Source: Agrococcus baldri (lineage in GTDB: Bacteria; Actinomycetota; Actinomycetes; Actinomycetales; Microbacteriaceae). From it: DNA of 64,000 nt. Under the pieces are notes generated by a model. It ran no database searches. It worked only from the letters and a program-made list of their open reading frames with translations, and was not told the DNA's origin. Positions within the stretch are counted from its first letter, which is position 1. Each line of letters starts with the position of its first letter. Both the position numbers and the translations under genes were made by a program. Below, piece after piece: positions 25,961-56,047 of this stretch. The DNA lies in NCBI GenBank assembly GCA_007988785.1, contig BJUU01000006.1, positions 1 through 64,000 on the forward strand, given 5' to 3'.

Positions 25961-27082
25961 CTACGAGTCCAGCGGCACGTGCAGGCGGGCGCGCGGACGC
26001 TCGAGCGGCGAGCCCTCGATGATCGTCAGGCCCTCCGCGTCGATCGCGACCGTCGCGAGGGTCTGCCAGGCGCGGCCGAGCGGCTGCTCGGGGCGCGCGA
26101 CGCAGCAGATGTCGCCGAGCTCGGCTCCGGGCGCGGTGCGCAGCATCGGCACGAGGTCGAGCGCGCCGCGCACCGGCTCGACACCCGCGCGGGCGGCGAT
26201 GCGGGCGCGCAGCAGCCGCAGCCGGTCGTCGCTGTCAGGGTCGCCGCGGAACGTGCGGGAGCCCGCCGCGAGCCGGCGCGAGAGGAAGTGGTTCGTGCGC
26301 GGCAGCCAGTGCTGCCCGAGCGCGTCGGGCTCCGGCTCGATGCGCTCGCTGCCCGCCGGGCTCAGCTCGATCGCGGCGGTCATGCGGCCACGGTCGGCGG
26401 TCGGCCCGACGAGCGTCAGGACGCTCGACGACGTCACGCGCGCCGAGGCGGCGATCGCGAGCGCCGCCTCCACCGTCTCTGCCTCGGCGAGGATGCGGTG
26501 CAGTACCGAGTGGATCGGCACCCCGCCGACTCGATCCTCGGCGTGCGAGAGGATCGCGAGCAGCACGCCCACGCCCACTTCGTTCATGCCGACCTTGGCG
26601 CAGATGCCGTGCTCAGTGATGCCCGCGAAGGCGAGCGGCCCGCCCCGCACCTGCTGCGCGTGCCAGGCGCCGGCGAGCTCGCGGTGCCAGTCCCAGACCT
26701 GCGTCGCCGCGGCGGGCGCGAGCGTCGCGAGGATCGTGCACTCGCGGCCGGGGTGCCCGGCACCCGTCGCCCCGGCGTGCGCATCCGGCCCGCCCTTCGC
26801 CACCAGCAGCTCGGTGCGGGCGCCGAGCGCCGCCGCCACCCACGGCTCGAGTCCCGCGCCCTCGGCGACGCCCGCGATCTCGTCGCGGCCGTCCGGCCAC
26901 CAGTCCCCGAGCGCGTCGATCGAGGCGAGCGCGTGCTCGCGCACCTCGGCCTCGCTCCAGCCTGCGAGCGCGAACAGCTGCAGGTGCACCGGCCAGTGCG
27001 CGCGCACGACGCTCGCGACCTGCCGGCCGCGATCGACGCCGCGCTCGCGGGGCGAGGCGCCGGCGATCTCGAGCACGCGCAC
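25961..27082 (-). CDS. C45-family acyltransferase/amidohydrolase (second paralogue)
   Basis: A 373-residue Ntn hydrolase of the peptidase C45 (isopenicillin N acyltransferase, AAT-like) family. The probable autocatalytic nucleophile is Cys115 in the GRECTILATL segment, followed by QVWDWHREL, the GITEHGICAKVGMN block and PRTNHFLS near the C-terminus. Members cleave or form amide bonds. It is the last gene of the nine-gene ABC operon and follows its paralogue by eight bases. I choose GTG 27082, with GAGG six bases upstream. The family is clear; the substrate is unknown. Confidence 0.8.
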   Translation of the reverse strand: MRVLEIAGASPRERGVDRGRQVASVVRAHWPVHLQLFALAGWSEAEVREHALASIDALGDWWPDGRDEIAGVAEGAGLEPWVAAALGARTELLVAKGGPDAHAGATGAGHPGRECTILATLAPAAATQVWDWHRELAGAWHAQQVRGGPLAFAGITEHGICAKVGMNEVGVGVLLAILSHAEDRVGGVPIHSVLHRILAEAETVEAALAIAASARVTSSSVLTLVGPTADRGRMTAAIELSPAGSERIEPEPDALGQHWLPRTNHFLSRRLAAGSRTFRGDPDSDDRLRLLRARIAARAGVEPVRGALDLVPMLRTAPGAELGDICCVARPEQPLGRAWQTLATVAIDAEGLTIIEGSPLERPRARLHVPLDS

Positions 27083-27090
27083 GCGGGACC

Positions 27091-28200
27091 TCAGCCGAAC
27101 CGGCGCACGGTGCCGGCGTCGAGCCCGCTCGGCGGGCCCGCGAACCAGTCGATCGCGCCGGCGACGACGTCGAGCGAGGCGGTGAGCAGCGTCTCCCAGC
27201 GGTCCGAGAGCGAGGCCGCGGGCTTGACGCGCACGCACACCGGCGCATCCGCCCCCGCCGCCCCGCACATCGCGGCCGCCATCGACACGGCGTCGTCGGC
27301 CGCGCCGATCGCCGCGCGCTGCGCGACCGTGTGGTCGTAGCGCGGGCCGGTCGTCGAGGTGTCGGACGTCGCCTCGCCGGCGGCGAGCTGCGGGTCGAGG
27401 AAGTGGTTCGTGTGCGCGAGGAAGCCCTCCTGCGCCTCGACGACCGCCACGCCCTCGGGGGCGAGCTCGAGGCTCGCCGCGCGCGCGGGCGCCGACGCGC
27501 TCGCGCCCTGCACGACGGTCAGCACCGTCGAGGCGCCGACCGTCGCCGAGCGCGCGAGCGCCACCGCGTCGTCGACGCTCGAGGCCTCATCGAGGATGCG
27601 CCGCATCACGACGTGCACGGGCACGCCGATCGCCGCCCGATCGGAGGCGTGGTGGAGGATGTTGAAGTGCACGCCCAGCCCGCCGTGCCCGCCGGCCGGC
27701 GCCGTGACGCCGATCTTGCCGACCATGCCGGTCTCGCTGAAGGTGCGCACGACGCGGGCGGGCGCATCCGACCCGCCCGGCAGGTGCAGCTCGAGCATCA
27801 CCCCGGTCGGCACGAGCTCGCCGTGCCAGTCCCAGGTCTGCATCGTCATCGGCCGGCGGTCGTCGTGCAGCGCGACGACCGTCGAGCACTCGAGCACGCC
27901 GACGGGCGCGTGCGCGAGGATCTCGGTGCGGGCGGTGAGCAGCATCAGGTCGTGCATGCTCGCCCCGGCGCTCGAGGCGAGGCCCGTCAGCTCCTCCCAC
28001 TGCGTCGGCGCCCAATCGCGCACGGCCTCGAGCGAGCCCGCCACCACCTCGTCGACCACGCCCGCTGGCACGCCCATCACCTCGTACGCCTGCCGGTAGA
28101 GCTCGATCGTGCGGCGCACCTCGCCGCCCATCTCGGCACCGTAGGCGATCCCGCGGGCGTGGGCCGAGGCATCCGTCAATCGCAGCTCGGTGACTCTCAT
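27091..28200 (-). CDS. C45-family acyltransferase/amidohydrolase (first paralogue)
   Basis: A 369-residue homologue of the following gene product, with the same landmarks: LECSTVVAL with candidate nucleophile Cys105, QTWDWHGEL, GMVGKIGVT and LAHTNHFLDP. Isopenicillin N acyltransferase uses a cysteine at about this position after self-cleavage. Two tandem, clearly diverged copies suggest two related amide substrates or a hetero-oligomer. The ATG overlaps the stop of the PaiB-like gene (ATGA). No signal peptide is visible, so it acts in the cytoplasm on imported material. Confidence 0.82.
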   Translation of the reverse strand: MRVTELRLTDASAHARGIAYGAEMGGEVRRTIELYRQAYEVMGVPAGVVDEVVAGSLEAVRDWAPTQWEELTGLASSAGASMHDLMLLTARTEILAHAPVGVLECSTVVALHDDRRPMTMQTWDWHGELVPTGVMLELHLPGGSDAPARVVRTFSETGMVGKIGVTAPAGGHGGLGVHFNILHHASDRAAIGVPVHVVMRRILDEASSVDDAVALARSATVGASTVLTVVQGASASAPARAASLELAPEGVAVVEAQEGFLAHTNHFLDPQLAAGEATSDTSTTGPRYDHTVAQRAAIGAADDAVSMAAAMCGAAGADAPVCVRVKPAASLSDRWETLLTASLDVVAGAIDWFAGPPSGLDAGTVRRFG

Positions 28201-28880
28201 GCATCCTCCAGCGGTGGGTAGTGGCCGCGCCGCACGTGCTCGGCGGGCAGCGCATCCATCATCCCGGCGAGATCGGCGTGCGGGCAGACGGCGGCGCCCG
28301 CGAACTCGTCGCGCACCCGCGCGCGCACGTCGGCGGGCTTGTCCTGGCTCAGCTTGAAGACGGCCTGCTCGGCGGTGATGTCGATCGTGAAGGCCTTGAC
28401 GCCGCCGATGATCGCGCGGAAGACGTCGAGCGATGCCGTCATGTCCCACTGCTTCTCGCGCGTGCCCTCGAGCTGCCGCACGGTCTGCTCGACCACCGCG
28501 AGCGCCTCGTCGTCGGTGTGCAGCAGCCGCACCGTGCCCGTCAGGTGCACGGCCGTGTAGTCGACGGTCGGCACCGATGGGTCCTTCTCGTACAGCGTCG
28601 GCGACACGTACCCGTGCGACGAGCTGTGGATGAGCAGCACCTCGGGCCGGTCCTCCATCAGCCGCCAGTGGCGGTTGGCGTGCCCCATGTGCGACCAGAG
28701 CGTCGTGCCGACGAGGGTGTCGGCGGATGCGACGTCGAGCCCGGGCGGCACCACCACCGGCACGTGCGTGGCGATCGGGGCGCCCGCCTGCGAGGTCACC
28801 GCGAGCGCGAACGGCGTGCGGGCGACGAAGTCGACGATCGCCCGCCCGTCGGGCGCGTGGTAGCTCGGGTAGGTGTGCAC
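28197..28880 (-). CDS. PaiB-like FMN-binding protein
   Basis: A 227-residue split-barrel protein of the PaiB/FMN-binding negative-regulator family: FALAVTSQAGAPIATHVPVV, the SHMGHANRHWR segment, then HSSSHGYVSPTLYEKDPSVPT and the tail containing FTIDITAEQAVFKLSQ. Family members bind FMN or heme; a regulatory role is recorded only for Bacillus PaiB. The start is the GTG at 28880, one base after the stop of the amidase gene. Inside a catabolic operon an oxidoreductase role is as likely as regulation. Confidence 0.82.
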   Translation of the reverse strand: MHTYPSYHAPDGRAIVDFVARTPFALAVTSQAGAPIATHVPVVVPPGLDVASADTLVGTTLWSHMGHANRHWRLMEDRPEVLLIHSSSHGYVSPTLYEKDPSVPTVDYTAVHLTGTVRLLHTDDEALAVVEQTVRQLEGTREKQWDMTASLDVFRAIIGGVKAFTIDITAEQAVFKLSQDKPADVRARVRDEFAGAAVCPHADLAGMMDALPAEHVRRGHYPPLEDA

Positions 28881-28881
28881 G

Positions 28882-30677: not shown

Positions 30678-31531
30678 GCGCCCACCTCCGCGTCGTCGGG
30701 CTCGCCGGCCTGGCTGGCGAGCATCTCGGTGTAGGTGCGCACCTCGACGCCGCGCCGCAGCCGCGACGGCATGGCGGCGAGCAGCGACTGCGTGTACGGA
30801 TGCTCGGGCGCCTCGAGCACGGAGGCCGTCGGTCCGTCCTCCACGATCCTGCCCCGGTACATGACCGCCACCCGCCGGCACCACTTGGCCACCGCATCCA
30901 GGTCGTGGCTGAGCCACACGACGGTGGCGCCGGTCTGCTCCGCGGCCTCGAAGACGAGCTTCAGCACCTCGCGGCGCACGTTGGCGTCGAGCGCCGCGGT
31001 GGGCTCGTCGGCGATCAGGATGCGCGGGCGGCGCGCCATCGCGATGGCGATCGCGACGCGCTGCGCCATGCCGCCGGAGAGCTGGTGCGGGAAGCGTCGC
31101 AGCACGTCGGCGGGATCGGCGATCTGCACCTCCTCGAGCAGCTGCGCGAGCGCCGCCCTCGAGGCGTCGCCGCCGAGGTCGCGCACGACGAGCGCGAGCT
31201 GCCCGCCGACCCGCATCGTGGGGTTGAGCGTGGCGATCGGATCCTGCGGGATGAAGCCGAGCGTCTCGCGGCGCAGCCGACGGAGGCCGGGCCGGTCGAG
31301 CGTGCCGACGTCGACGCCGTCGACGCGCACCGTGCCGCCCGCGAAGCCGCCGTTGGCCGGCAGCAGGGCGCCGATGGCGGTGCCGATGGTCGACTTGCCG
31401 CTGCCCGACTCGCCGACGATCGCGATGCGCTCGCCCGCCGAGGCGTGCAGGGTGGCGCCGGCGAGGGCGCGCACGGTGCCGCGCGGGGTGCGGAACTCGA
31501 CGACCAGGTCGTCGATCTCGATGAGGCTCAT
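30674..31531 (-). CDS. peptide-type ABC transporter ATPase (DppD/OppD-like)
   Basis: A 285-residue ATPase with Walker A GESGSGKST, IPQDPIATLNPTMRV, the slightly altered signature LSGGMAQRVAIA, Walker B ILIADEPTAALD and the tail PEHPYTQSLLAAMPSRLRRGV. It is the first of the two ATPases of the importer, linked by ATGA overlaps to the permease gene before and the ATPase gene after. Confidence 0.93.
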   Translation of the reverse strand: MSLIEIDDLVVEFRTPRGTVRALAGATLHASAGERIAIVGESGSGKSTIGTAIGALLPANGGFAGGTVRVDGVDVGTLDRPGLRRLRRETLGFIPQDPIATLNPTMRVGGQLALVVRDLGGDASRAALAQLLEEVQIADPADVLRRFPHQLSGGMAQRVAIAIAMARRPRILIADEPTAALDANVRREVLKLVFEAAEQTGATVVWLSHDLDAVAKWCRRVAVMYRGRIVEDGPTASVLEAPEHPYTQSLLAAMPSRLRRGVEVRTYTEMLASQAGEPDDAEVGA

Positions 31532-32400
31532 GTGAGGTCCACCGCCTCTCGCGGCTCGAGCCGGTCGCGCAGGGCGTCGCCGACCAGGGTGACGGCGAGG
31601 ATCGCGAGCACCATGGTGGTGCCCGCGGCGATGAGGATCCACGGCGCGGTGAGCAGGTAGACGTTGCCCTCGCTCACGAGCAGGCCGAGCGATGCGGCCG
31701 GCAGCTGCACGCCGTAGCCGAGGAAGGAGAGGCCGCCCTCGACGAGGATCGCGACCGACAGCGCGTAGGTGCCCTGCACGACGACGGTGCCGCTGACGCA
31801 GGTGAGCAGGTGCCGCACCATGATGACCGGTGCGGCGACGCCCGAGATCCTGGCGCTGGTGACGAAGTCGCGCCGGGCGACGTCGGTGGCCGCCGCGCAC
31901 ACCATGCGGGTCATGAGCGGCACGGTCACGAGCACGATGCTCGCGAGCGCCGCGGTCGAGCCCGGCCCGATCGCGGCGGCGACGAGGAGCGCCAGCAGGA
32001 TCGCCGGGAAGGCGTAGAGCACGTCGCCGATGCGCATCACGAGCTCGCGCACCCAGCCGCCGGCGTAGGCGGCGACGATGCCGAGCGCGGTCGCGATGAC
32101 CGCGGTGCAGAGCACGGCGAGCGCCGAGAGCAGGAAGGTGGTGCCGATGCCCTCGAGCAGTCGCGCGACGAGGCTGCGGCCGAGGCTGTCGGTGCCGAGC
32201 GGATGCGCGAGGCTCGGTGCCTCGAAGCGCCCGCCCACGGTCGTGGTGCCGTCGTTCAGGCCGGGGATGAGGCGCCCGGCGAGGCTGGCCGCCACGAGCA
32301 GGCCGAGGATGACGACCGCGATCGTCAGCACCGGGTCGCTCGTGCGCAGGCTGCGGAGCCTGCCGGGCGTGCGGGCGAGGGCTGCGGCGGCGCCGGTCAT
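31528..32400 (-). CDS. peptide-type ABC permease (DppC-like)
   Basis: A 290-residue permease with six membrane segments and an N-terminal region typical of DppC, including HPLGTDSLGRSLVARLL. The coupling-helix (EAA-like) region DFVTSARISGVAAPVIMVRHLL contacts the ATPases, and the family block GLSFLGYGVQLPAASLGLLV follows. It is part of the nine-gene operon, with four-base overlaps at both ends. Confidence 0.93.
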   Translation of the reverse strand: MTGAAAALARTPGRLRSLRTSDPVLTIAVVILGLLVAASLAGRLIPGLNDGTTTVGGRFEAPSLAHPLGTDSLGRSLVARLLEGIGTTFLLSALAVLCTAVIATALGIVAAYAGGWVRELVMRIGDVLYAFPAILLALLVAAAIGPGSTAALASIVLVTVPLMTRMVCAAATDVARRDFVTSARISGVAAPVIMVRHLLTCVSGTVVVQGTYALSVAILVEGGLSFLGYGVQLPAASLGLLVSEGNVYLLTAPWILIAAGTTMVLAILAVTLVGDALRDRLEPREAVDLT

Positions 32401-33362
32401 GTCGTCGCTCCCATCGTCGAGACCCGCGGGTCGATGAGGTTGGAGGCGAGCTCGACGAGCACGCTCATCACCACGAACACCACGGCCGCGAGCATGACGG
32501 CCGCCTGGATGACGGCGTAGTCGCGCCGGTCCATCGCCAGCAGCATGTAGGAGCCGACGCCCGGCACGTTGAACAGGCCCTCGACGATGACGGCGCCGCC
32601 GAGCAGGTAGGCGAGCAGCGTGGCCGCGAGCGTGAGGATGGGGATGGATGCGTTGCGCAGCACGTGGTGCCGCACGATCGCCCATGGCCGCTCGCCGCGG
32701 CCGACGGCGGCCTGGATCCACGGCTCGACGAGCACCCCGAGCACCGCGTCGCGCGTGGTGCGGGCGGTGGCGGCGGCGCAGAAGACCGACAGCACGAGCG
32801 CCGGCAGCAGGCTCGAGACGAGGCCCAGCCAGAGGTCGTCGCTGATGGCGGTGAAGGCGCCGATGGTGATGCCGAGCGGCACGGTCGAGAACAGCAGCAC
32901 CACGAGGGCGCCGAGCACGAACTCGGGCACCGAGATGCCGAGCCCGCTGATCACCCGCGAGCCGACCGCGCCGCCGCGCCGGCGTGCCCGCAGCGCCTGC
33001 AGCACGCCGAGGGGCACGCCGACGAGCAGCGCGATGCCGAGCGCCATGAGGGCGAGCGTCGCCGTCACCGGCAGGCGCAGCGCGATCTCGTCGAGCACCG
33101 GCTGGCCCGAGATGATCGAGTCGCCGAAGTCGCCGGTGACGACCTTCCCGATCCAGATCCCGAACTGCGTGAACAGGTCGCGATCGAGGCCCAGCTCTGC
33201 GGTGAGCGCATCGCGCTGCTCCTGCGTCGCGAGCGGTCCCAGCAGCACCGAGGCGGCCTGCCCCGGCACCAGCCGCGCCGCGAAGAACACGAGCAGCGCG
33301 ATGCCGAGCAGCGTCACCAGCCCCATCAGGAGCCGGCGGCCCACCCACCGCAGCGTCTGCAT
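32397..33362 (-). CDS. peptide-type ABC permease (DppB-like)
   Basis: A 321-residue permease, six membrane segments, beginning WVGRRLLMGLVTLLGIALLVFF and ending with ELASNLIDPR, the DppB pattern. The ATPase-contacting loop is RHHVLRNASIPILTL. The extracytoplasmic loop LGPLATQEQRDALTAELGLD matches the family. Its ATG shares a base with the stop of the binding-protein gene (TGATG). Confidence 0.93.
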   Translation of the reverse strand: MQTLRWVGRRLLMGLVTLLGIALLVFFAARLVPGQAASVLLGPLATQEQRDALTAELGLDRDLFTQFGIWIGKVVTGDFGDSIISGQPVLDEIALRLPVTATLALMALGIALLVGVPLGVLQALRARRRGGAVGSRVISGLGISVPEFVLGALVVLLFSTVPLGITIGAFTAISDDLWLGLVSSLLPALVLSVFCAAATARTTRDAVLGVLVEPWIQAAVGRGERPWAIVRHHVLRNASIPILTLAATLLAYLLGGAVIVEGLFNVPGVGSYMLLAMDRRDYAVIQAAVMLAAVVFVVMSVLVELASNLIDPRVSTMGATT

Positions 33363-34987
33363 CAGCCCTCGATCGTCTTGAACTCGGCGATCAGCCGCAG
33401 GAAGTCGCCGTAGCCCTCGTCGGAGAGCACCGACGCCGACAGCTGGTCGCTGCGGATGCCGACCACCTGCGGGCGGGTGGCGAGCGGCACCATCTCGGCG
33501 TGGGTGTCGGCGAGGTCGCAGACCGACTGCAGCGCCTCGGCGCGCTCGGTGCCGGCGGGCAGCGCCTGCGCCTCGGCGATCGCGGCCGAGAGGTCGTCGT
33601 GCGGCTGCGCGAAGCCGGCGTTGAAGACGGCCGTCTCGGGGTTCCACCAGTTGGTCACCATCGAGGCGTCGCCGTAGCCGGCGAACCAGCCGAGCGCCAT
33701 CTGGAAGTCGCCCGGCTGGGCGACGTAGACCCGCTCGGAGTAGGTGCCGTAGTCGACGCTGTCGAGCGTGACCTCAGCGCCGGCGCCCTGCAGCTGCTGC
33801 TGCACCACCTGCGCGAGCGCGGTGAGCGAGGGGTCGTCGTTGTAGATCAGCAGCGAGATGCTCTCGCCCGCGAGGGCGTCGGCGGCGGGCTCTGCGGATG
33901 CGGAGGGCACGGAGTCGGCCGCGCACGCGTCGGGCAGGTTGGCGGGCGTGACCGCCGTCGGCACCGCCGCGCCCGCGAGGGCGAGGTCGACGATGCCCTG
34001 CCGGTCGAGCACGGCGTTGACGGTCTGCCGCAGCTGCTGGTCGACGAACGGCGAGTCGGGGTTGACCGAGTTCAGCATCGCGTAGAAGAAGTCGCTCTGC
34101 GTCTGGCTCACGGCGGTGACGCCCTGCGCGCCCGCCAGCAGCGAGAGCGCGTCGGGGTTGGAGAAGTTCGCCAGCTGCGTCGAGCCGTCGCGCAGCCCGG
34201 CGAGACGGGTCTGGTCGTCGGCGGCGATCGTCAGCTCGAGCGCGTCGATGCCCAGCTGCTCGGCGTTCCACCACTCGGCGTTCGCCTCGAACGACCACGA
34301 CTCGTCCTGCCGGTGCTCGGCGACCGTGAAGGCGCCGGAGCCGAGCATCTCGGCGGTCGGGTCGAGCTCGCCCGCCTCGATCTCCTGCATCGGCAGGATG
34401 GCGGCGGGCGTGTTGGCGAGCGCGGCGAGCAGCGGCGTGAAGGGCGTCTCGAGCGTGATCGTCACCTGCTGCGCGTCGCCCGAGGAGGTGTCGGCGATCT
34501 CGGCGATGGGGCCGAGCTGGCCCGACCAGACCGAGCCCGACTCGCGCAGGCGGTTCAGCGAGCCGACCACGTCGGCGGCGCTCACGGCGCGGCCGTTCGA
34601 GAAGGTGGCGCCGGGCTGCAGGTCGAACACGTAGGTGGTGTCGTCGGGCTGCTCCCACGACGCGGCGAGCTCCGGCTGGATCTCGAAGCCGGGGCCGACG
34701 GTCACGAGCGACTCGTACACGAGGCCCATGATCGACCACGATCGCGCGATCTCGGCGAAGGCGGGGTCGAGGCCCTGCGCCTCGGCGGTGTCGTAGTCGA
34801 CCTGCACGTGCAGCGGGCCGCCGGCGCTCTCGATCGACTCGTCGGCGACCGACGCGTAGCCGGCCGGCAGGTTCGGGTCGGCGGGCTGCTCGCTGCCGCC
34901 GGGCGTGGCGCCGCCGCCGGTGCAGGCGGTGAGAGCGAGCGCCGCGATCGCGGCCGCCGCGACGGTGATCTTGGAGGTGGTGCGCAC
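33362..34987 (-). CDS. extracellular solute-binding lipoprotein, family 5
   Basis: A 541-residue lipoprotein. The signal peptide ends in the lipobox LTAC (residues 19-22), so Cys22 is lipidated and the protein is anchored outside the membrane. The body is a family 5 (DppA/OppA) binding protein: QPELAASWEQPDDTTYVFDLQPGATFSNG-type block near residue 110, and GWFAGYGDASMVTNWWNP near 445. The family binds peptides, nickel, sugars and other polar ligands. First gene of the nine-gene operon; GTG start with GGAGG seven bases upstream. Confidence 0.93.
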   Translation of the reverse strand: MRTTSKITVAAAAIAALALTACTGGGATPGGSEQPADPNLPAGYASVADESIESAGGPLHVQVDYDTAEAQGLDPAFAEIARSWSIMGLVYESLVTVGPGFEIQPELAASWEQPDDTTYVFDLQPGATFSNGRAVSAADVVGSLNRLRESGSVWSGQLGPIAEIADTSSGDAQQVTITLETPFTPLLAALANTPAAILPMQEIEAGELDPTAEMLGSGAFTVAEHRQDESWSFEANAEWWNAEQLGIDALELTIAADDQTRLAGLRDGSTQLANFSNPDALSLLAGAQGVTAVSQTQSDFFYAMLNSVNPDSPFVDQQLRQTVNAVLDRQGIVDLALAGAAVPTAVTPANLPDACAADSVPSASAEPAADALAGESISLLIYNDDPSLTALAQVVQQQLQGAGAEVTLDSVDYGTYSERVYVAQPGDFQMALGWFAGYGDASMVTNWWNPETAVFNAGFAQPHDDLSAAIAEAQALPAGTERAEALQSVCDLADTHAEMVPLATRPQVVGIRSDQLSASVLSDEGYGDFLRLIAEFKTIEG

Positions 34988-35045
34988 GGGGGTGCCTCCG
35001 TGGTCAGAGATCCATGCCTGTCGAACGCCATCGATCGACCGGCGG

Positions 35046-35100
35046 TGCCGGATCGTTCCGGCATGCCGGGAAATCTACGCGGGGCGAGCATCCGGGTCAA
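35046..35100 (-). promoter_or_regulatory. promoter and LacI operator of the ABC/amidase operon
   Basis: On the minus strand, -35 TTGACC (35095-35100) and -10 TAGATT (35072-35077) are separated by exactly 17 bases. Immediately downstream, over the predicted start point, lies the 18-bp palindrome TGCCGGATCGTTCCGGCA (35046-35063; arms TGCCGGA/TCCGGCA). An overlapping perfect palindrome CCGGCATGCCGG occupies 35058-35069. Near-identical 18-mers at 35161 and 37871 make the first the likelier operator. A repressor there would block transcription initiation. Confidence 0.85.
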
Positions 35101-35160
35101 GCCCGCGCCACCGCATCCGCCCGAAGTTCACACAATCGTGACATTCCGCTCGGCCATTGG

Positions 35161-35178
35161 TGCCGGATCGATCCGCCT
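35161..35178. promoter_or_regulatory. second copy of the LacI operator, upstream of lacI
   Basis: TGCCGGATCGATCCGCCT matches the operator at 35046 at 15 of 18 positions and contains the perfect 12-bp palindrome CGGATCGATCCG (35164-35175). It lies 41 bases before the lacI start codon, so autoregulation is likely; looping with the copy 115 bases away is possible. Confidence 0.75.
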
Positions 35179-35218
35179 CGCTCGCCTCGCGAGCGCCGGG
35201 CCGTGGTAGACAACTGGC

Positions 35219-36211
35219 ATGAGCAGGAGAGCCGCGACCATCGTCGACGTCGCCAAGCGCGCGGGCGTCTCGCGCACGACGGCGTCGGATGCGCTGCGCG
35301 GGCACGGGCGCGTCTCGGAGGGCACGCGCGTGGCCGTCGAGCAGGCGGCGGCCGAGCTCGGCTACCGGCCCAACACGGCGGCGCGCTCGCTGCGGGCCGC
35401 GACGACCGGCACGATCGGCATCCACCTGCCCGAGGCGATGACGCGCATCGACTACTACCTGCAGACCGTCTACGGCGCGCTCGAGCAGGCGGGCGCCGAC
35501 GAGGTCGACGTCACCGTCATCACCTCCCGCCGGCTCGCGGGCGAGCAGCCGCCGCCGAGCGTCGACGGCATCATCCTGCTCGACCCGCTCGCCGACGACC
35601 CGGTGGCCGAGCGGCTGCTCGCCCTCGACCTGCCGATCGTCACGCTCGAGCGAGCGTTCGGCGAGGTCGCGACCGGGGTGGTCTCCGCCGACCACGAAGG
35701 AGCGATCCGCGAGCTGCTCGACCACCTCGCCTCCCGCGGCAGCGCGGCGCCCGCCTTCCTCGCCTCCCCCGCCGTCACCGACTGGGGCACCCGCGCGCAG
35801 GTCGTCTACAGCGCGTGGTGCCGCGAGCAGCGCATCCAGCCCACGATCGTCGAGCGCCCCTTCGGATCGGACTCGGCGGCGTACGCCGAGGCGACGCGCG
35901 AGGTGCTCGCCGCTCGGCCGCAGACGGATGCGTTCCTGTGCGGGCCGGACGGCTCGGCGATCGTGGTGGCCGACGTGCTGCAGGACGCCGGGCGCGTCGT
36001 CGGCGAGGACGTGCTGGTCGCGGCGATGGTCGACAGCCCGGCGCTCGCCTACACGGATCCGCCCGTGACGGCCGTCGACCTCGCGCCGCGGGCCGCCGGG
36101 GCGCTGTGCGTCGAGCTGCTCGTGCGGATCATCCGCGGCGAGGCCCGGCCCGACGCATCCGTGCCGCTGCCCATCGAGGTGCGCTACCGCGCCTCGACGC
36201 TGGGTCGCTAG
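35219..36211 (+). CDS. LacI-family regulator of the amide-catabolism regulon
   Basis: A 330-residue LacI-type repressor: N-terminal helix-turn-helix TIVDVAKRAGVSRTTASDAL, hinge TAARSLRAATTGTIGI, then a ligand-binding domain. It is divergent from the ABC/amidase operon. Three copies of one 18-bp palindrome, in front of this gene, in the operon promoter and between the dehydrogenase and CoA-transferase genes, are its probable binding sites. The inducer is presumably the imported substrate or a breakdown product. Confidence 0.92.
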   Translation: MSRRAATIVDVAKRAGVSRTTASDALRGHGRVSEGTRVAVEQAAAELGYRPNTAARSLRAATTGTIGIHLPEAMTRIDYYLQTVYGALEQAGADEVDVTVITSRRLAGEQPPPSVDGIILLDPLADDPVAERLLALDLPIVTLERAFGEVATGVVSADHEGAIRELLDHLASRGSAAPAFLASPAVTDWGTRAQVVYSAWCREQRIQPTIVERPFGSDSAAYAEATREVLAARPQTDAFLCGPDGSAIVVADVLQDAGRVVGEDVLVAAMVDSPALAYTDPPVTAVDLAPRAAGALCVELLVRIIRGEARPDASVPLPIEVRYRASTLGR

Positions 36212-36227
36212 CTCCCGCCGTACGCGC

Positions 36228-36425
36228 CGTAGGTTGAGGAGGCCGCGGGCGCAGCCCGCTGCCGTCACGAAACCGCAGGCGCCCGCCCGCCGTAGGTCGA
36301 GGAGCGCGCGTGCGCAGCACGCACGCGTCACGAGACCGCAGGCGGTAGCGATTCGCCCCTCCGATCTCGTGACGCGAGCGGCTGCGCCGCGCGCTCCGGC
36401 TGCTGAGCCCGCCGAAGGGCGATCT
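36228..36425. repeat. palindromic repeats of the GTAGGTCGAGGAG family, two joined copies
   Basis: A left-half copy (GTAGGTTGAGGAGGCCGCGG then CGTCACGAAACCG) is followed at about 36292 by a second element (CGTAGGTCGAGGAGCGCGCG, ACGCGTCACGAGACCG, then ATCTCGTGACGCGAG), ending in a CTGAGCCCGCCGAAGGG segment that resembles the CCCTTCGAC family. The 233-base gap between the convergent lacI and dehydrogenase genes consists almost entirely of this. Confidence 0.8.
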
Positions 36426-36444
36426 ACGGGGCGGGGCGGGCGAT

Positions 36445-37809
36445 CTACGCGGCCGGCTGCGTCACGAGCCGCCGGTTCGCGAACTCGAGCACCGCATCCG
36501 GGCCGAGCTCCCGGCCGAAGCCCGAGCGCTTCACGCCGCCGAAGGGCAGCTCGGGCCGCGAGATGCCGAACGCGCCGATCGAGACCATGCCGGCCTCGAG
36601 CCGCTCGGCGATCCAGGCGGCCCGCTCGGCGTCGGCGTCGAAGACGTTGGCGCCCAGCCCGAAGGGCGAGTCGTTCGCGGCCTCGACGGCCTCGGCCGCG
36701 TCGCGCACCGGCACGACGATCGCGACGGGTCCGAACAGCTCCTGGTGCCACACGGCCATGTCGCGGGTGACGCCCGTGAGCACGCCGGGCTCGACCCACG
36801 CGCCCGGCCGGTCGATGCGCCTGCCGCCCGCGAGCGTCGCGCCCTCGGCGACCGCGGCCTCCACCTGCCCGACGAGCTCTGCCGCCGCGGCCTCGCTCGA
36901 CATCGGGCCCACCTCGACGCCCTCCTCGAGCGGCGAGCCGATGCGCAGCGCCGCCATGCCGGCGACGAGCCGCTCGACGAACGCGTCGTAGAGCGATTCG
37001 TGCACGATGAAGCGCTTCGCCGAGGTGCACGCCTGCCCGCAGTTGCGGGTGCGGGCGGCGATGGCGGTCGCGACGTCGCGCTCGAGGTCGTCGGTCGACA
37101 TCAGGATGAACGGGTCGGAGCCGCCCAGCTCGAGCACGCAGCGCGTCAGCGCCCGGCCGGCCGTCTCGGCCACGGCCGCGCCGGCCCGCTCGCTGCCGGT
37201 GAGCGAGACGCCCTGCACCCGCGGGTCCTCGATCATGCGCGCGATCTGCCCGTTGGTGGCCAGCACCGTCTGGTAGAGCCCCGGGGCCAGGCCCGAGGCA
37301 TCCGCCATCTCCTGCATGAGCAGCGCCGCACCGGTGCAGCTGCCGGCGTGCTTGATGATCACCGGGTTGCCGAGCAGCAGGTTGGGGGCGGCGAAGCGGG
37401 CGACCTGGTAGTAGGGGAAGTTCCAGGGCATGACGCCCACGAGCGGCCCGGTCGGCCGCAGCTCGACGCGCGCGCTGCGGCCGCGCCAACCGGTCTCCAT
37501 CTCGCGGCTCGCGAGCAGCTCCGGCCGGTCGGCGTACCAGTCCCAGATGTCGGCGACGAGCCGCGCCTCGCCCGCCGCCTGCGGCAGCGGCTTGCCCATC
37601 TCGCGCGCGATCGTCTCGGCCAGCTCGGCCTCGCGCTCGCGGAAGCCGGCCGCGATGGCGCGCATCGCCGCGATGCGCTCCTCGAGGCTCGGCAGGGCAG
37701 CGGATGCGTCGGCCGCGGCCTGCAGGACGCGCTCGATCTCGGCGTCGGTGGCGTCGGCGTGCTCGGCGATGAGCTCGCCCGTCGCGGGGTCGACGGAGCG
37801 GTAGGCCAT
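36445..37809 (-). CDS. NAD(P)-dependent aldehyde dehydrogenase, succinate-semialdehyde type
   Basis: A 454-residue dehydrogenase most like the Sad/YneI and GabD group: MAYRSVDPATGEL at the start, MPWNFPYYQVARFAAPNLL, ELGGSDPFIL containing the catalytic glutamate, NCGQACTSAKRF with the catalytic cysteine, and ELPFGGVKRSGFGREL near the end. This group oxidises succinate or glutarate semialdehyde. The start is the ATG at 37809 with GGAGG just upstream. It is divergent from the CoA-transferase gene and shares a LacI-type operator with it. Confidence 0.88.
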   Translation of the reverse strand: MAYRSVDPATGELIAEHADATDAEIERVLQAAADASAALPSLEERIAAMRAIAAGFREREAELAETIAREMGKPLPQAAGEARLVADIWDWYADRPELLASREMETGWRGRSARVELRPTGPLVGVMPWNFPYYQVARFAAPNLLLGNPVIIKHAGSCTGAALLMQEMADASGLAPGLYQTVLATNGQIARMIEDPRVQGVSLTGSERAGAAVAETAGRALTRCVLELGGSDPFILMSTDDLERDVATAIAARTRNCGQACTSAKRFIVHESLYDAFVERLVAGMAALRIGSPLEEGVEVGPMSSEAAAAELVGQVEAAVAEGATLAGGRRIDRPGAWVEPGVLTGVTRDMAVWHQELFGPVAIVVPVRDAAEAVEAANDSPFGLGANVFDADAERAAWIAERLEAGMVSIGAFGISRPELPFGGVKRSGFGRELGPDAVLEFANRRLVTQPAA

Positions 37810-37849
37810 GGGTCCTCCAGGGGGTTCGCGAGGGTGTTCGACGATGGGC

Positions 37850-37892
37850 ACGATACGCGGGATTGCCTGATGACGGAACGATCCGGCATGCT
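37850..37892. promoter_or_regulatory. divergent promoters sharing the third LacI operator
   Basis: Operator TGACGGAACGATCCGGCA (37871-37888) is the reverse complement of the 35046 site with one mismatch. Rightward: -35 TTGCCT (37863-37868) and -10 CATGCT (37887-37892), 18 bases apart, with the operator in the spacer and a GTG start six bases after the -10. Leftward: -35 TTCCGT (37873-37878) and -10 TATCGT (37850-37855), 17 bases apart. One bound repressor would cover both promoters. Confidence 0.8.
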
Positions 37893-37898
37893 GGGTGC

Positions 37899-39101
37899 GT
37901 GACCGCTGCCCCACACCCCGACGACGCGCCCTTCGCCGGGCTGCTGGTCGCCGACCTCTCGCGCGTGCTGGCCGGGCCGCTCGTCGGCGCGACGCTCGCC
38001 GACCTCGGAGCGCGCGTGATCAAGGTCGAGCAGCCGGGCACGGGCGACGGCACCCGCGCCTGGTCGCCGCCGGCCTCGGCGACGGGCTCGACCTACTTCG
38101 ACAGCGCCAACCGCGGCAAGGAGTCGGTCGCGCTCGACCTGGGCGCGCCCGCCGACCTCGCGCTCGCCCGCGAGCTCATCGCGCGCGCCGACGTCGTGAT
38201 CGAGAACTTCCGACCCGGCGGCGCCACGCGGCTGGGCCTCGACCGCGACGCGCTGCTCGCCGAGCACCCGGGGCTCGTGTGGTGCTCGATCACCGGCTAC
38301 GGCGCCCAGCCCGGCGGCGCCGGCCGCGCCGGCTACGACTTCGTGCTGCAGGCCGCGAGCGGGCTCATGCACATCACCGGCGATACCGAAGGGCCGCCGA
38401 CCAAGGCGGGCGTGGCGCTCGTCGACGTGCTCACCGCGAAGGATGCGCTCGCCGGCATCCTCGCGGCGCTGCTGCGCCGGGGCCGCACGGGCCGCGGCGG
38501 GCTCGTCGAGGTGGCACTGCTCTCGAGCATCCAGGCGGCGCTCGTCAACCAGCTGCAGGCGGTGCTGGGGCCGATCGGCGCCGAGGCTGTCCCCGCGGGC
38601 GTCGCCGCAGAACCCCGCCGGGCCGGCAGCGCGCATCCCTCGATCGTGCCCTACCAGCTGCTCGAGACCGGCGACGGGCCGCTCGCGGTCGCCGTCGGCA
38701 CCGACGGGCAGTTCCGCGCCTTCGCGGCGCTGCTGGGCGCGCCCGAGCTCGCCGGCGACCCGCGCTTCGCCACCAACCCCCAGCGCGTCGCCCACCGCGA
38801 GGCGCTCGTGCCGCTGCTCGAGGCCGCGCTCGCCGCCGGCACCGCCGCAGTCTGGGAGCAGCGCATGCTCGCCGCCGGCCTCGTCGCCAGCCGCGTGCGC
38901 ACGATCGGCGAGGGCCTCGCGCTCGCCGCCGAGGTGGGGCTCGACCCGGTGCGCGAGGTGCGCGGCGCCGCCGGCGTGGGCCGTCAGCTCGCCTCGCCCA
39001 TCCGCATCGACGGCGTCGCGCGCACGTCGACGACCGCGCCTCCGCTGCTCGGCGAGCACGACGCATCCGTGCGAGCCTGGCTCTCGCAGCCCGCACCCTG
39101 A
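37899..39101 (+). CDS. CaiB/BaiF-family CoA-transferase
   Basis: A 400-residue class III CoA-transferase: LVADLSRVLAGPLVGATLADLGARVIKVE at the start, ENFRPGG, the GYDFVLQAASGLMHITGD region and LVDVLTAKDALAGI, where the catalytic aspartate is expected. Next to a glutaryl-CoA-dehydrogenase-like gene, the best-fitting role is transfer of CoA to a dicarboxylate such as glutarate, as in SUGCT. The start is the GTG at 37899, six bases after a -10 hexamer overlapped by the LacI operator, hence probably leaderless and repressible. Confidence 0.87.
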   Translation: MTAAPHPDDAPFAGLLVADLSRVLAGPLVGATLADLGARVIKVEQPGTGDGTRAWSPPASATGSTYFDSANRGKESVALDLGAPADLALARELIARADVVIENFRPGGATRLGLDRDALLAEHPGLVWCSITGYGAQPGGAGRAGYDFVLQAASGLMHITGDTEGPPTKAGVALVDVLTAKDALAGILAALLRRGRTGRGGLVEVALLSSIQAALVNQLQAVLGPIGAEAVPAGVAAEPRRAGSAHPSIVPYQLLETGDGPLAVAVGTDGQFRAFAALLGAPELAGDPRFATNPQRVAHREALVPLLEAALAAGTAAVWEQRMLAAGLVASRVRTIGEGLALAAEVGLDPVREVRGAAGVGRQLASPIRIDGVARTSTTAPPLLGEHDASVRAWLSQPAP

Positions 39102-39166
39102 CCGCGACACGCGCGCCAACGCATCCGCCTGACGCCATCGACCGACGCCATCGACCGAGGAGCCCC

Positions 39167-40324
39167 ATGACCACCGACCTGCTCGATCTCGAATCGCTGC
39201 TCACCGACGAGGAGCGCGCCGTGCGGGCGCGGGTGCGGGCGCTCGTCGACCGCGAGATCAGGCCGCACATCGCCGACTGGTTCGAGCGCGCGCACTTCCC
39301 GCGCGAGCTCGTGCCGAAGCTCGCGGCCGAGGGGCTGCTGGGCATGCACATCACGGGCTACGGATGCGCGGGGCGCTCGTCGGTGGAGTACGGCATCGCG
39401 ATGCAGGAGCTCGAGGCGGGCGACAGCGGCATCCGCACCTTCGTGTCGGTGCAGGGCTCGCTCGCGATGAGCGCGGTCGCGAAGCACGGCTCGGAGGAGC
39501 AGAAGCAGGCGTGGCTGCCGCGCATGGCGGCGGGTGAGGCGATCGGCTGCTTCGGGCTCACGGAGCCGAACGCGGGCAGCGATCCCGGCGCGATGCAGAC
39601 CTTCGCGCGGCGCGACGGCGACGACTGGGTGATCGACGGCGCGAAGCGCTGGATCGGGCTCGCCTCGATCGCCGACGTCGCCGTCATCTGGGCGCAGACC
39701 GAGGAGGGCGTGCGCGGCTTCCTGGTGGAGACGTCGACGCCGGGCTTCACGGCGACGCCGATCGAGCCGAAGCTGTCGATGCGGGCGTCGATCCAGTGCG
39801 ACATCGCGCTCGAGGGCGTGCGGGTGCCGGAGTCGGCGCGGCTGCCGGAGGCGCGGGGACTGCGGGCGCCCTTCGAGTGCCTGAACGAGGCGCGGTTCGG
39901 CATCGCCTGGGGTGCGCTCGGCGCCGGCCGCGACGCGCTCGAGACGGCGCTCGCCTACGCGGGCGAGCGGGAGGTCTTCGGCCGGCCGCTCGCCGGCATG
40001 CAGCTGACGCAGGCGCGGCTGGCCGAGATGGCGCTGTCGCTGCAGCAGGCGCAGCTGCTGGCGTTGCACCTCGGGCGTCGCAAGGACGCCGGTGGCTTGC
40101 GCCCGCACGAGATCTCGATGGGCAAGCTCGCCTCGTGCCGTACGGCGATCGACATCTGCCGCGAGGCGCGCGCCATCCTGGGCGGCAACGGCGTCTCGCT
40201 CGAGCACTCCCCCATGCGGCACGCCGCGAACCTCGAGAGCGTGCGCACCTACGAGGGCACCGACGAAGTGCACACCCTCGTGATCGGGCAGGCGCTGACG
40301 GGGTTGGCGGCATTCCGGGGGTGA
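39167..40324 (+). CDS. acyl-CoA dehydrogenase, glutaryl-CoA dehydrogenase-like
   Basis: A 385-residue flavoenzyme strongly reminiscent of glutaryl-CoA dehydrogenase: ITGYGCAGRSSVEYGIAMQELE, CFGLTEPNAGSDPGAMQT, the active-site base region RTYEGTDEVHTLVIGQALTG, and NEARFGIAWGALGAG. GCDH oxidises and decarboxylates glutaryl-CoA to crotonyl-CoA. GAGGAG lies five bases before the ATG. It follows the CoA-transferase by 65 bases in the same operon. Identity as a true GCDH rather than a relative for another short dicarboxylyl-CoA is inferred. Confidence 0.88.
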   Translation: MTTDLLDLESLLTDEERAVRARVRALVDREIRPHIADWFERAHFPRELVPKLAAEGLLGMHITGYGCAGRSSVEYGIAMQELEAGDSGIRTFVSVQGSLAMSAVAKHGSEEQKQAWLPRMAAGEAIGCFGLTEPNAGSDPGAMQTFARRDGDDWVIDGAKRWIGLASIADVAVIWAQTEEGVRGFLVETSTPGFTATPIEPKLSMRASIQCDIALEGVRVPESARLPEARGLRAPFECLNEARFGIAWGALGAGRDALETALAYAGEREVFGRPLAGMQLTQARLAEMALSLQQAQLLALHLGRRKDAGGLRPHEISMGKLASCRTAIDICREARAILGGNGVSLEHSPMRHAANLESVRTYEGTDEVHTLVIGQALTGLAAFRG

Positions 40325-42649: not shown

Positions 42650-42653
42650 GTTT

Positions 42654-42663
42654 CATACGTATG
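42654..42663 (+). promoter_or_regulatory. operator upstream of the MHS transporter
   Basis: CATACGTATG is a perfect palindrome between the lacI stop and the transporter, 38 bases before its ATG. TTGAGT just upstream (42645-42650) could be a -35, placing the palindrome in the promoter spacer. It pairs with the palindrome at 41603. Confidence 0.6.
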
Positions 42664-42701
42664 CACAGCAGGCTCTCCTTGTCTGTCAAAGGAGACATCT
42701 C

Positions 42702-44066: not shown

Positions 44067-44093
44067 ACCCACCAACCGCGAAGGAGAACCATC

Positions 44094-47061: not shown

Positions 47062-47111
47062 TTGCGAGCGCATCCGGCGGGGCATACTGTATTCCTGAAC
47101 GATCGGTCACT
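47062..47111 (+). promoter_or_regulatory. paa thiolase operon promoter with TetR-type operator
   Basis: -35 TTGCGA (47062-47067) and -10 TACTGT (47085-47090) are 17 bases apart. CCTGAACGATCGGTCACT (47094-47111) follows; its core TGAnCG-N2-CGnTCA is a TetR-type palindrome. The same element, differing at two positions, lies before paaA at 56030, and both are followed by AATTC. This marks the two rightward paa transcripts as co-regulated. Confidence 0.8.
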
Positions 47112-55998: not shown

Positions 55999-56047
55999 TT
56001 GCAGGGCCGCTCGCGACGAGTCTATACTTACTGAACGTTCGGTCACT
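55999..56047 (+). promoter_or_regulatory. paaA promoter with TetR/PaaR-type operator
   Basis: -35 TTGCAG (55999-56004) and a strong -10 TATACT (56023-56028) are 18 bases apart. ACTGAACGTTCGGTCACT (56030-56047), core TGAACG-TT-CGGTCA, covers the expected start point. It matches the site at 47094 except at two positions. A repressor here could also affect paaI on the other strand. Confidence 0.85.

What the first reader, a model, noticed from the sequence alone, without database searches (positions are those of the whole stretch)
35046..37888. Three near-identical 18-bp palindromes define a LacI regulon spanning an ABC importer, amidases and an acyl-CoA branch
Seen: TGCCGGATCGTTCCGGCA at 35046-35063, TGCCGGATCGATCCGCCT at 35161-35178, and TGACGGAACGATCCGGCA at 37871-37888 (reverse complement of the first with one mismatch). 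The first covers the start point of a promoter with TTGACC-17-TAGATT; the third lies between -35 and -10 of one promoter and over the -35 of the divergent one. A lacI gene lies between them. Inference: one repressor controls at least 13 genes (25961-40324), joining import, amide cleavage, aldehyde oxidation and CoA-ester steps.
Basis: partly seen in the sequence, partly recalled or inferred. Interest (0 to 1): 0.85.

Follow-up and report, generated by a model that had tools for sequence, protein, structure and literature searches.

The report
Repressor-controlled home of nylon-cutting enzymes
In a group of actinobacteria, near-identical 18-base DNA palindromes sit in front of genes for an importer, a relative of the nylon-cutting enzyme NylC and C5-acid-degrading enzymes, with a LacI-type repressor gene among them, so the repressor likely controls them as one unit that is predicted to digest natural nylon-like amides, possibly iron-binding desferrioxamines, which would explain where nylon-degrading enzymes come from.

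Summary
The three palindromes are real and are the three best matches in the 3.16-Mb Agrococcus-type genome. The same palindrome recurs beside lacI orthologues and before the same genes elsewhere. In an unbiased exact-pattern scan of another family 21 of 297 genomes had it, and in 19 of the 21 it fronts this operon. Where the aldehyde-dehydrogenase/CoA-transferase pair has moved 5.5-7 kb from lacI it keeps its site; where the pair is split by 11 kb each gene has one. Most LacI relatives with another recognition helix lack it. Distant clusters add copper amine oxidase and GABA-type aminotransferase. Best reading: a LacI regulon for importing and degrading amides of C5 diamines; desferrioxamine is the boldest candidate, untested. 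LacI binding, inducer and substrate are not shown. Catalogued LacI regulons are almost all for sugars.

The parts
35046..35063 (.). Operator 1 (palindrome), at the predicted start point of the dppA promoter
   Evidence: the equivalent site is 0 mm in G004, G009, G021, G023 and 0 mm in most distant clusters
35161..35178 (.). Operator 2, upstream of lacI; 115 bp from operator 1 (11.0 helical turns)
   Evidence: a second site is kept at 104-115 bp in 6 other genomes of the genus
37871..37888 (.). Operator 3, between divergent ALDH and CoA-transferase genes
   Evidence: kept when the gene pair lies 5.5-7.0 kb from lacI (G009, G021, G023); one copy each when the pair is split by 11 kb (G004)
35072..35100 (-). 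predicted promoter of the dpp-nylC operon (TTGACC-17-TAGATT)
   Evidence: sequence consensus only
35219..36211 (+). lacI-type repressor gene, helix AGVSRTTASDAL
   Evidence: Pfam PF00356, PF13377; helix comparison
33362..34987 (-). DppA-like solute-binding protein (SBP family 5)
   Evidence: PF00496
32397..33362 (-). DppB-like permease
   Evidence: PF00528; start set
31528..32400 (-). DppC-like permease
   Evidence: PF00528
30674..31531 (-). DppD-like ATPase
   Evidence: PF00005
29946..30677 (-). DppF-like ATPase
   Evidence: PF00005
28882..29949 (-). NylC-type Ntn hydrolase (peptidase S58/P1 family), 355 aa
   Evidence: PDB NylC entries E 2e-108 to 3e-106; K189, N219, N266, T267, D306, D308 kept
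28197..28880 (-). NohD/piperazate-synthase-like protein (Pfam FMN_bind_2)
   Evidence: PDB NohD E 1e-46, piperazate synthase 4e-41, PaiB only 3e-14
27091..28200 (-). C45 autoproteolytic acyltransferase/hydrolase 1
   Evidence: NF040521 above cut-off
25961..27082 (-). C45 autoproteolytic acyltransferase/hydrolase 2
   Evidence: NF040521 above cut-off
36445..37809 (-). aldehyde dehydrogenase, nearest to Sad-type succinate-semialdehyde dehydrogenases
   Evidence: best NCBIfam model 435 of 730 bits (below cut-off); PDB 3efv 4e-108
37899..39101 (+). class III CoA-transferase, nearest model succinate--glutarate CoA-transferase (below its cut-off)
   Evidence: (NF052585, 294 of 750 bits)
39167..40324 (+). 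glutaryl-CoA-dehydrogenase-type acyl-CoA dehydrogenase
   Evidence: PDB 3swo 4e-153, 3sf6 8e-152; NCBIfam models all below cut-off

Best explanation
A lacI-type gene and three copies of one conserved 18-bp palindrome frame an operon cluster that the LacI protein likely represses as one regulon: a Dpp-type importer, a NylC-type amidase, a NohD-like protein, two C45-family hydrolases and a glutaryl-CoA-type branch, together predicted to import and degrade amides or hydroxamates of C5 diamines. Predicted steps: (1) the repressor sits on operators 1+2 (possibly looped) and 3; an inducer derived from the substrate releases it. (2) The importer brings in oligo-amides. (3) The NylC-type enzyme and the C45 enzymes cut the acyl-N bonds. 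(4) The NohD-like protein (where present), and in relatives a copper amine oxidase or GABA-type aminotransferase, turn the C5 amine end into an aldehyde. (5) The aldehyde dehydrogenase gives glutarate. (6) The CoA-transferase and glutaryl-CoA dehydrogenase give crotonyl-CoA. Shown: gene families, and operator sequence and conservation. Inferred: binding, induction, substrate, order of steps. The regulon part alone I hold at about 0.95; the C5-amide substrate class at about 0.6.
For: Three best sites in the genome. Conserved sites before orthologous dppA, lacI, ALDH and CoA-transferase, following the genes when they move. Exact site in 7 of 394 class genomes, 9 sites, all in a cluster with a LacI of this subfamily. 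Exact site in 21 of 297 genomes of another family, in 19 of which it fronts the dpp-nylC cluster (with 36 for G187 and G252). 8 of 9 LacI relatives with a TTASDAL or STASDAL helix have the site in full, the ninth has half of it before a run of N. Gene identities: NylC, NohD-like, C45 (19), glutaryl-CoA dehydrogenase type (20, 76), glutarate-type CoA-transferase, Sad-type ALDH. Copper amine oxidase and GABA-type aminotransferase in distant clusters.
Against: No binding or expression data. ALDH, CoA-transferase and acyl-CoA dehydrogenase are all below the curated cut-offs of their nearest NCBIfam models; for the dehydrogenase two other models (FadE 245.5, acryloyl-CoA reductase 225.9 bits) outrank the glutaryl-CoA one (174.5 of 470). 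In G002 the CoA-transferase/dehydrogenase pair (87%/94%) exists without nylC and without a site, so the pair also serves elsewhere. G456, G765 and G252 show dpp, two nylC copies, C45 and lacI but no hit to the C5-branch genes in the stretches read. The window genome has no copper amine oxidase, and its nearest GABA-type aminotransferase (48%) is unlinked, with no site. G058 has a LacI with helix VSTTTVSDAL, the same as the site-bearing paralogues of G003, G013 and G016, but no site in the 4 kb read. G781 has a 2-mm site beside a LacI with another helix. 2 of 21 exact-site genomes have no such cluster.
Confidence: 0.72

Rival explanations
1. The regulon is real, but its substrate is a C6 nylon-type oligomer (6-aminohexanoate), that is, a xenobiotic or adipate pathway.
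For: NylC-type enzyme with the compared residues kept; the chromosomal NylC of G668, in the same dpp-nylC-C45 gene order, is 84% identical to the authentic NylC.
Against: The acid branch is nearest to solved glutaryl-CoA (C5) dehydrogenases and keeps their motif residues, next to a CoA-transferase nearest to succinate--glutarate CoA-transferase; cluster plus site were seen in 12 genera, unlikely for a recent man-made compound.
Confidence: 0.1
2. The importer and amidases handle ordinary or beta-/D-peptides (DmpA/BapA-like role); the C5 branch is coincidental or serves lysine catabolism.
For: Dpp/Opp-type importer; Pfam calls the enzyme Peptidase_S58; G456, G765 and G252 clusters show no C5 branch in the stretches read.
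Against: The enzyme is far nearer to NylC (2e-108) than to the solved L-aminopeptidase/D-esterase (1.5e-21) or ThnT (9e-12); one operator type covers both halves and follows them when separated; copper amine oxidase is in 17 of the 19 clusters found through.
Confidence: 0.17
3. An ordinary sugar-type LacI that merely sits beside unrelated genes; the palindromes serve lacI autoregulation only.
For: LacI family members usually regulate sugar genes (176 of 182 groups with an assigned pathway, PMC4052901 passage).
Against: Sites precede the operons even when lacI is kilobases away; no sugar gene is among the 13.
Confidence: 0.03

Closest known systems
NylC, 6-aminohexanoate-oligomer endohydrolase of plasmid pOAD2, Agromyces and Kocuria (PDB 5xyg, 3axg)
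   Same: Same family, 355 aa, six of six compared residues kept including the Asn266/Thr267 autocleavage site; 57% identity over 317 aligned residues.
   Different: Here the gene is chromosomal, inside an operon with its own importer and beside a LacI repressor; the natural substrate is predicted to be C5, not C6.
LacI-family regulons catalogued by comparative genomics (PMC4052901; passages seen)
   Same: Palindromic operators, local repressor, transporter-enzyme regulon.
   Different: 176 of 182 groups with a pathway are carbohydrate; the exceptions named in the passages seen are nucleosides, purines and neotrehalosadiamine. None named there is amide, diamine or hydroxamate catabolism.
UriR / CcpA / LacI repressors
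   Same: HTH plus periplasmic-binding-like domain; UriR is the best NCBIfam model (97 bits of a 550 cut-off).
   Different: Far below any equivalog cut-off listed; recognition helix S-R-T-T-A-S-D-A-L, and GPDGSA in a stretch where sugar-type LacI proteins usually have NDxxA (the usual motif is recalled).
NohD N-hydroxylamine dehydratase and piperazate synthases (PDB 9or1, 9ebk)
   Same: Closest solved relatives of the FMN_bind_2 protein.
   Different: Piperazate synthases are biosynthetic (PMC13274692 passages); a catabolic role is inferred here.
Bacterial glutarate branch (glutarate CoA-transferase plus glutaryl-CoA dehydrogenase)
   Same: Nearest enzyme families.
   Different: Here under a LacI operator and tied to an amide-cleaving operon.

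Membership tests
LacI-family transcription factor | LacI HTH plus periplasmic-binding-protein-like domain | tested here: met
   PF00356 60 bits, PF13377 80 bits, both above cut-off
LacI-family transcription factor | binds a conserved palindromic operator with central CG near its target genes | tested here: inconclusive
   Palindrome conserved with the gene and its helix; binding itself not testable here
known LacI equivalogs (UriR, CcpA, GntR, RbsR etc.) | score above NCBIfam cut-off | tested here: not met
   best UriR 97.1 bits against 550
NylC-type nylon hydrolase | Asn266-Thr267 autocleavage pair, presumed catalytic Lys189 and Asn219 | tested here: met
   all kept in the window protein; kept in 129 or 130 of 130 aligned sequences; residue roles from PMC6021441 passages
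NylC-type nylon hydrolase | hydrolyses 6-aminohexanoate oligomers | not testable with these tools
   no assay
C45 acyltransferase/hydrolase (penicillin AT family) | NCBIfam NF040521 above cut-off | tested here: met
   165.5 and 193.9 bits against 85
glutaryl-CoA dehydrogenase | closest to solved glutaryl-CoA dehydrogenases, with the TYEGT glutamate and the DSGxR arginine | tested here: met
   (residue roles, human Glu370/Arg94 numbering and 1siq as the human enzyme are recalled)
glutaryl-CoA dehydrogenase | NCBIfam NF045552 above cut-off | tested here: not met
   174.5 bits against 470, third of 21 models; that model is of the Desulfo-type enzyme, judging by its name only
succinate--glutarate CoA-transferase (NF052585) | curated cut-off 750 bits | tested here: not met
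   294 bits, best of 7 models; filed as class III CoA-transferase only
NohD / piperazate synthase | sequence closer to these than to PaiB; heme-ligand His and K-x3-D-K pattern | tested here: met
   E 1e-46 and 4e-41 against 3e-14; SHMGHAN and KLSQDK in the sequence, matched by eye to residues named in PMC13274692 passages
NohD / piperazate synthase | heme binding and action on an N-hydroxyamine | not testable with these tools
   needs protein
desferrioxamine catabolic system | degrades desferrioxamine | not testable with these tools
   no assay; gene content is compatible only

The most novel reading that the evidence does not exclude
This is the missing genetic system for using hydroxamate siderophores of the desferrioxamine type as food, under a LacI repressor that senses a diamine-type product, and nylon hydrolase NylC is a borrowed desferrioxamine amidase (a natural cadaverine-succinate "nylon" cutter). 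Every gene gets a step: Dpp import; NylC on the succinyl-cadaverine amides; C45 on the hydroxamate bond; the NohD-like protein on N-hydroxycadaverine; amine oxidase or aminotransferase and aldehyde dehydrogenase to glutarate; CoA-transferase and glutaryl-CoA dehydrogenase to crotonyl-CoA.
Probability: 0.3. Interest if true: 0.92.

Novelty: new variant of a known kind. Interest (0 to 1): 0.8.

Why it matters
Nylon hydrolases are studied for plastic recycling, and what they do in nature seems open: in PMC10858056 only passages were searched, and they name no natural substrate for NylC. This locus gives NylC a chromosomal home with an importer, a repressor, an operator and a downstream pathway, so the natural substrate becomes a short list that can be tested in one assay. 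It also takes the LacI family out of sugar and nucleoside control, with an operator sequence sharp enough to find the regulon in other actinobacterial genomes. If the desferrioxamine reading holds, it offers genes for siderophore degradation, a phenotype reported for desferrioxamine B by amide hydrolysis (PMC12364333 passage).

Tried and rejected
Rejected: chance palindromes; C6/adipate route as the first choice; sugar regulon (no sugar genes among the 13). Poly-epsilon-lysine as substrate was considered: the backbone fits NylC (recalled chemistry), but I saw no lysine-degrading entry step in the clusters and a free-glutarate branch suggests cadaverine or 5-aminovalerate; not excluded. Sites at 47092 and 56028 (3 mm) were set aside as a different palindrome family (TGACCGAACG..) in front of what look like thiolase and phenylacetate genes.

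Led nowhere or little: the genome-contig scan for LacI returned 80 loci of distant relatives (25-30% identity); they served only as a control: 0 of 80 hold a site with up to 1 mismatch anywhere in the stretch held. My helix pattern in that script recognised only 1 of the 80, so the 'upstream of LacI' part of that test is void. pOAD2 did not turn up in the plasmid collection, and the 1995 pOAD2 paper is not held, so the recalled presence of opp and penDE genes beside pOAD2 nylC could not be checked. Paper searches for NylC with natural substrate, glutaryl-CoA or LacI, or with siderophore, gave nothing relevant. No structure prediction or fold search was run.
Full report
WHAT WAS CHECKED. The three palindromes are at the stated places. 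With up to 3 mismatches the window holds only these three; 0 of 100 shuffles reach three. In the draft genome (3,158,485 bases, 48 contigs) they are the three best matches, the remaining 4 places having 3 mismatches, and the reversed-pattern control gives 0. The organism is an Agrococcus relative: genus mate G004 has a contig of exactly the length (2,705,439) of the longest contig of a protein named from Agrococcus sp. ARC_14.

GENES. Pfam and NCBIfam give, on the minus strand from 34987 down: DppA, DppB, DppC, DppD, DppF, a Peptidase_S58 protein, an FMN_bind_2 protein and two C45 hydrolases; then lacI (35219-36211, plus), aldehyde dehydrogenase (minus), and, divergent from it, a class III CoA-transferase and an acyl-CoA dehydrogenase (plus). 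Starts were set by hand and with a simple codon-score caller of my own.

THE PEPTIDASE IS NYLC-TYPE. Against all solved structures the S58 protein matches NylC (11 distinct NylC sequences, E 2e-108 to 3e-106, 355 aa like the query); next come Nyl12 (2e-49), a poly(hexamethylene adipamide) hydrolase (9e-31), an L-aminopeptidase/D-esterase (1.5e-21) and ThnT (9e-12). NylC residues Lys189, Asn219, Asn266 and Thr267 (roles from passages of PMC6021441), plus Asp306 and Asp308, are kept in the window protein. Among 130 aligned sequences (NylC, the 120 listed of 1168 database hits, and 9 locus proteins) Lys189, Thr267, Asp306 and Asp308 are invariant and Asn219 and Asn266 are kept in 129. The window protein is 57% identical to NylC over 317 aligned residues; the chromosomal copy of G668, in a dpp-nylC-C45 operon, is 84% identical. 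The authentic nylon hydrolase thus belongs to this family of operon-borne enzymes.

THE OTHER ENZYMES. The acyl-CoA dehydrogenase is nearest to glutaryl-CoA dehydrogenases among solved structures (3swo 4e-153; 1siq 7e-103; the TYEGT glutamate and DSGxR arginine kept). In NCBIfam all models are below cut-off and the glutaryl-CoA one (174.5 of 470 bits) ranks third, after FadE (245.5 of 600) and acryloyl-CoA reductase (225.9 of 640). The CoA-transferase is nearest to succinate--glutarate CoA-transferase but below its cut-off (294 of 750 bits). The aldehyde dehydrogenase is nearest to Sad-type succinate-semialdehyde dehydrogenases (435 of 730 bits, below cut-off; PDB). The FMN_bind_2 protein is nearest to NohD 'N-hydroxylamine dehydratase' (1e-46) and piperazate synthase (4e-41), PaiB being much further (3e-14). 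It contains SHMGHAN and KLSQDK, which by eye match the heme-ligand histidine, an asparagine and the Lys-173/Asp-177/Lys-178 residues named in passages of PMC13274692; the name NohD comes only from the PDB listing and no NohD paper was read.

CONSERVATION IN THE GENUS. Of 24 genus genomes 15 have some site with up to 2 mismatches to TGMCGGAWCGWTCCGKCA, so 2-mm sites are partly background; perfect matches occur only in G000, G004, G009, G021 and G023, which are also those with a LacI orthologue of at least 77%. In these four relatives two sites lie between dppA and lacI as in the window, and a further site precedes ALDH and CoA-transferase. In G009, G021 and G023 the ALDH/CoA-transferase pair is 5.5-7.0 kb from lacI with unrelated genes between, and keeps the shared site. 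In G004 ALDH and CoA-transferase are about 11 kb apart and each has one. G003 and G016 (LacI 65%) have two weaker sites (2-3 mm) between dppA and lacI. Control: in G002 the CoA-transferase/dehydrogenase pair is 87%/94% identical but there is no lacI or nylC hit beside it and no site within 2 mm.

CONSERVATION BEYOND THE FAMILY. NylC at E<=1e-40 occurs in 8 of 394 class genomes and at E<=1e-60 in 9 of 398 family genomes, the window's own included; in these searches only the 5 best first-look candidates of a genome were scored, so the counts are lower bounds. Reading around these and a Nonomuraea gerenzanensis record (Streptosporangiales), the dpp-nylC-C45 operon recurs with a LacI of 42-65% identity, and the palindrome at 0 mm in G525, G670, G456, G765, G252, G187, G238, G255 and Nonomuraea, and at 2 mm in G190. 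In G264 the first 11 bases of the operator are followed by a run of N. Genome-wide, G255 has one further 1-mm site, not looked at; the other five of these six genomes have no other site at up to 1 mm. G781 and G668 have dpp-nylC-C45 with a LacI of only 33% and another helix (VSITAVSHAL) and no site at the operon. G151 has nylC beside a 37% LacI with helix VGKSTVSNVL and no site. Cluster plus site was seen in 12 genera (genus codes as given by the genome search).

UNBIASED TESTS. (a) Exact TGCCGGAWCGWTCCGGCA in 394 class genomes: 7 genomes, 9 sites, reversed control 0. Five genomes are this cluster (G000, G187, G238, G252, G255); the other two (G096, G390) hold two sites each beside a LacI with helix VSKSTASDAL; in G096 the divergent gene is of the nitrilase family, nearest to N-carbamoylputrescine amidase (218 of 410 bits). 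(b) LacI relatives at E<=1e-45 in the same 394 (5 best candidates per genome scored): 12. Of the 9 with a TTASDAL or STASDAL helix 8 have a site at up to 2 mm (for G252 at the start of the operon, 8.7 kb from its lacI) and G264 has the half site before N; of the 3 others (G058 VSTTTVSDAL, G151, G267) none has one. G390, with sites in (a), is not among the 12; its LacI runs off a contig end. (c) Exact pattern in 297 genomes of G187's family: 21 genomes, 22 sites, reversed control 0; 19 of the 21 have the site at the dpp-nylC cluster (17 of 19 newly fetched, plus G187 and G252), 2 (G852, G924) do not and look like chance. Samples (a) and (c) share some genomes. (d) Over 448,625 bases of held loci, 32 sites at up to 2 mm lie at the places already found, 1 elsewhere (beside another LacI, helix ISKTAVSAAL, in G781), and the reversed control is 0; the 32 are not independent of the calls above. 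Helix and site: of eight LacI proteins without an SDAL helix that were looked at (G001, two in G781, G668, G151, G267 and two in the window), one, the G781 case, has a site at up to 2 mm nearby.

WHAT ELSE TRAVELS WITH IT. A copper amine oxidase gene lies with the dpp operon in 17 of the 19 clusters of test (c), and the NohD-like gene in 17 of 19 (both are missing from G252 and from G1041, of which only 6,000 bases of a 9,544-base contig were read). Copper amine oxidase was confirmed by Pfam in G187, G190 and G255. A GABA-type aminotransferase and another aldehyde dehydrogenase precede the CoA-transferase in G238, G255 and G264. In the genus, copper amine oxidase occurs in 4 of 9 genomes searched, not in G000. 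G456, G765 and G252 have two tandem nylC copies and no hit to the C5-branch genes in the stretches read. In G349 the LacI sites (1 and 2 mm) front a sodium-solute symporter and a histone-deacetylase-family gene, and 1.1 kb beyond lacI, after one kinase-like gene, lies a hydroxamate-siderophore-type biosynthesis set: IucA/IucC, acetyltransferase, lysine/ornithine-type N-monooxygenase and PLP decarboxylase, then a periplasmic binding protein (PF01497). One case; proximity only. In G003, G016 and G013 a second LacI (41-46%, helix VSTTTVSDAL) goes with sites at 1 mm before a GABA-aminotransferase-like gene and an aldehyde dehydrogenase gene elsewhere in the genome; in G003 and G016 the two LacI proteins cannot be told apart as binders. 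Against this link, G058 has the same helix and no site in the 4 kb read.

MECHANISM. Operator 1 sits at the predicted start point of the dppA promoter, operator 2 near lacI, operator 3 between divergent genes. Operator 1-2 distances of 104, 112, 113, 115, 138, 169 and 171 bp are within 0.33 of a whole number of turns at 10.5 bp, which permits looping but is a weak argument; the close pairs of G096, G390 and G190 (35-37 bp) are not in phase. The inducer is predicted to be a diamine or omega-amino-acid product, because the targets found for this subfamily (NylC/C45/NohD-like, aminotransferase and aldehyde dehydrogenase, carbamoylputrescine-amidase-like, deacetylase-family) act or could act on such compounds; inferred.

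SUBSTRATE. The chain-length evidence is the glutaryl-CoA-type dehydrogenase and the glutarate-type CoA-transferase: a C5 dicarboxylate. The amine oxidase or aminotransferase of distant clusters implies a C5 amine. The NohD-like protein suggests an N-hydroxylated amine. Desferrioxamines are cadaverine/N-hydroxycadaverine-succinate oligo-amides (recalled chemistry), and bacterial use of desferrioxamine B as a carbon substrate through amide hydrolysis is reported (PMC12364333 passage). This fits every gene but is untested. Against it: the NohD-like gene is missing from several clusters, and an oligopeptide-type importer is not a classical siderophore importer.

NOVELTY. In the catalogue of LacI regulons 176 of 182 groups with an assigned pathway are carbohydrate, and the non-sugar ones named in the passages seen are nucleoside, purine and neotrehalosadiamine (PMC4052901, passages only). 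Searches for NylC with natural substrate, glutaryl-CoA and LacI, with siderophore, N-hydroxycadaverine and catabolism and with siderophore alone listed no paper on this regulon by title or abstract; they cover open-licence papers only.

Noticed in passing
47092-47109 and 56028-56045: Another palindrome family (TTCCTGAACGATCGGTCA, TTACTGAACGTTCGGTCA) before a thiolase-like gene (47199) and before a gene at 56080 that looks by eye like the start of a phenylacetate cluster; a similar site precedes the thiolase-like gene in G001 and G002. Possibly a PaaR-type operator (name recalled).
   Followed up: partly
41636-45434: Second LacI (helix VSQSTVSRAL) beside an MFS transporter and what looks by eye like a histidinol-dehydrogenase-like gene: perhaps a separate small regulon, possibly for a sulfonate (recalled resemblance).
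   Followed up: no
L231 6225-17821 (G349): LacI of the same subfamily with two operators, a deacetylase-family gene and a hydroxamate-siderophore-type biosynthesis set next door.
   Followed up: partly
L132, L203, L204: Tandem nylC duplication with C45 and lacI at the end of the operon (G252, G456, G765).
   Followed up: partly
L136 7683-17499 (Variovorax boronicumulans plasmid): Dpp-type importer with two P1 peptidases, an M81 peptidase and a MurR/RpiR regulator instead of LacI: the importer-NylC-like link also exists in a proteobacterium.
   Followed up: no
L116, L117, L118, L113, L114, L115: In three genomes of the genus the same operator type (1 mm) fronts a GABA-aminotransferase-like gene and an aldehyde dehydrogenase gene, with a second LacI paralogue elsewhere in the genome.
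   Followed up: partly
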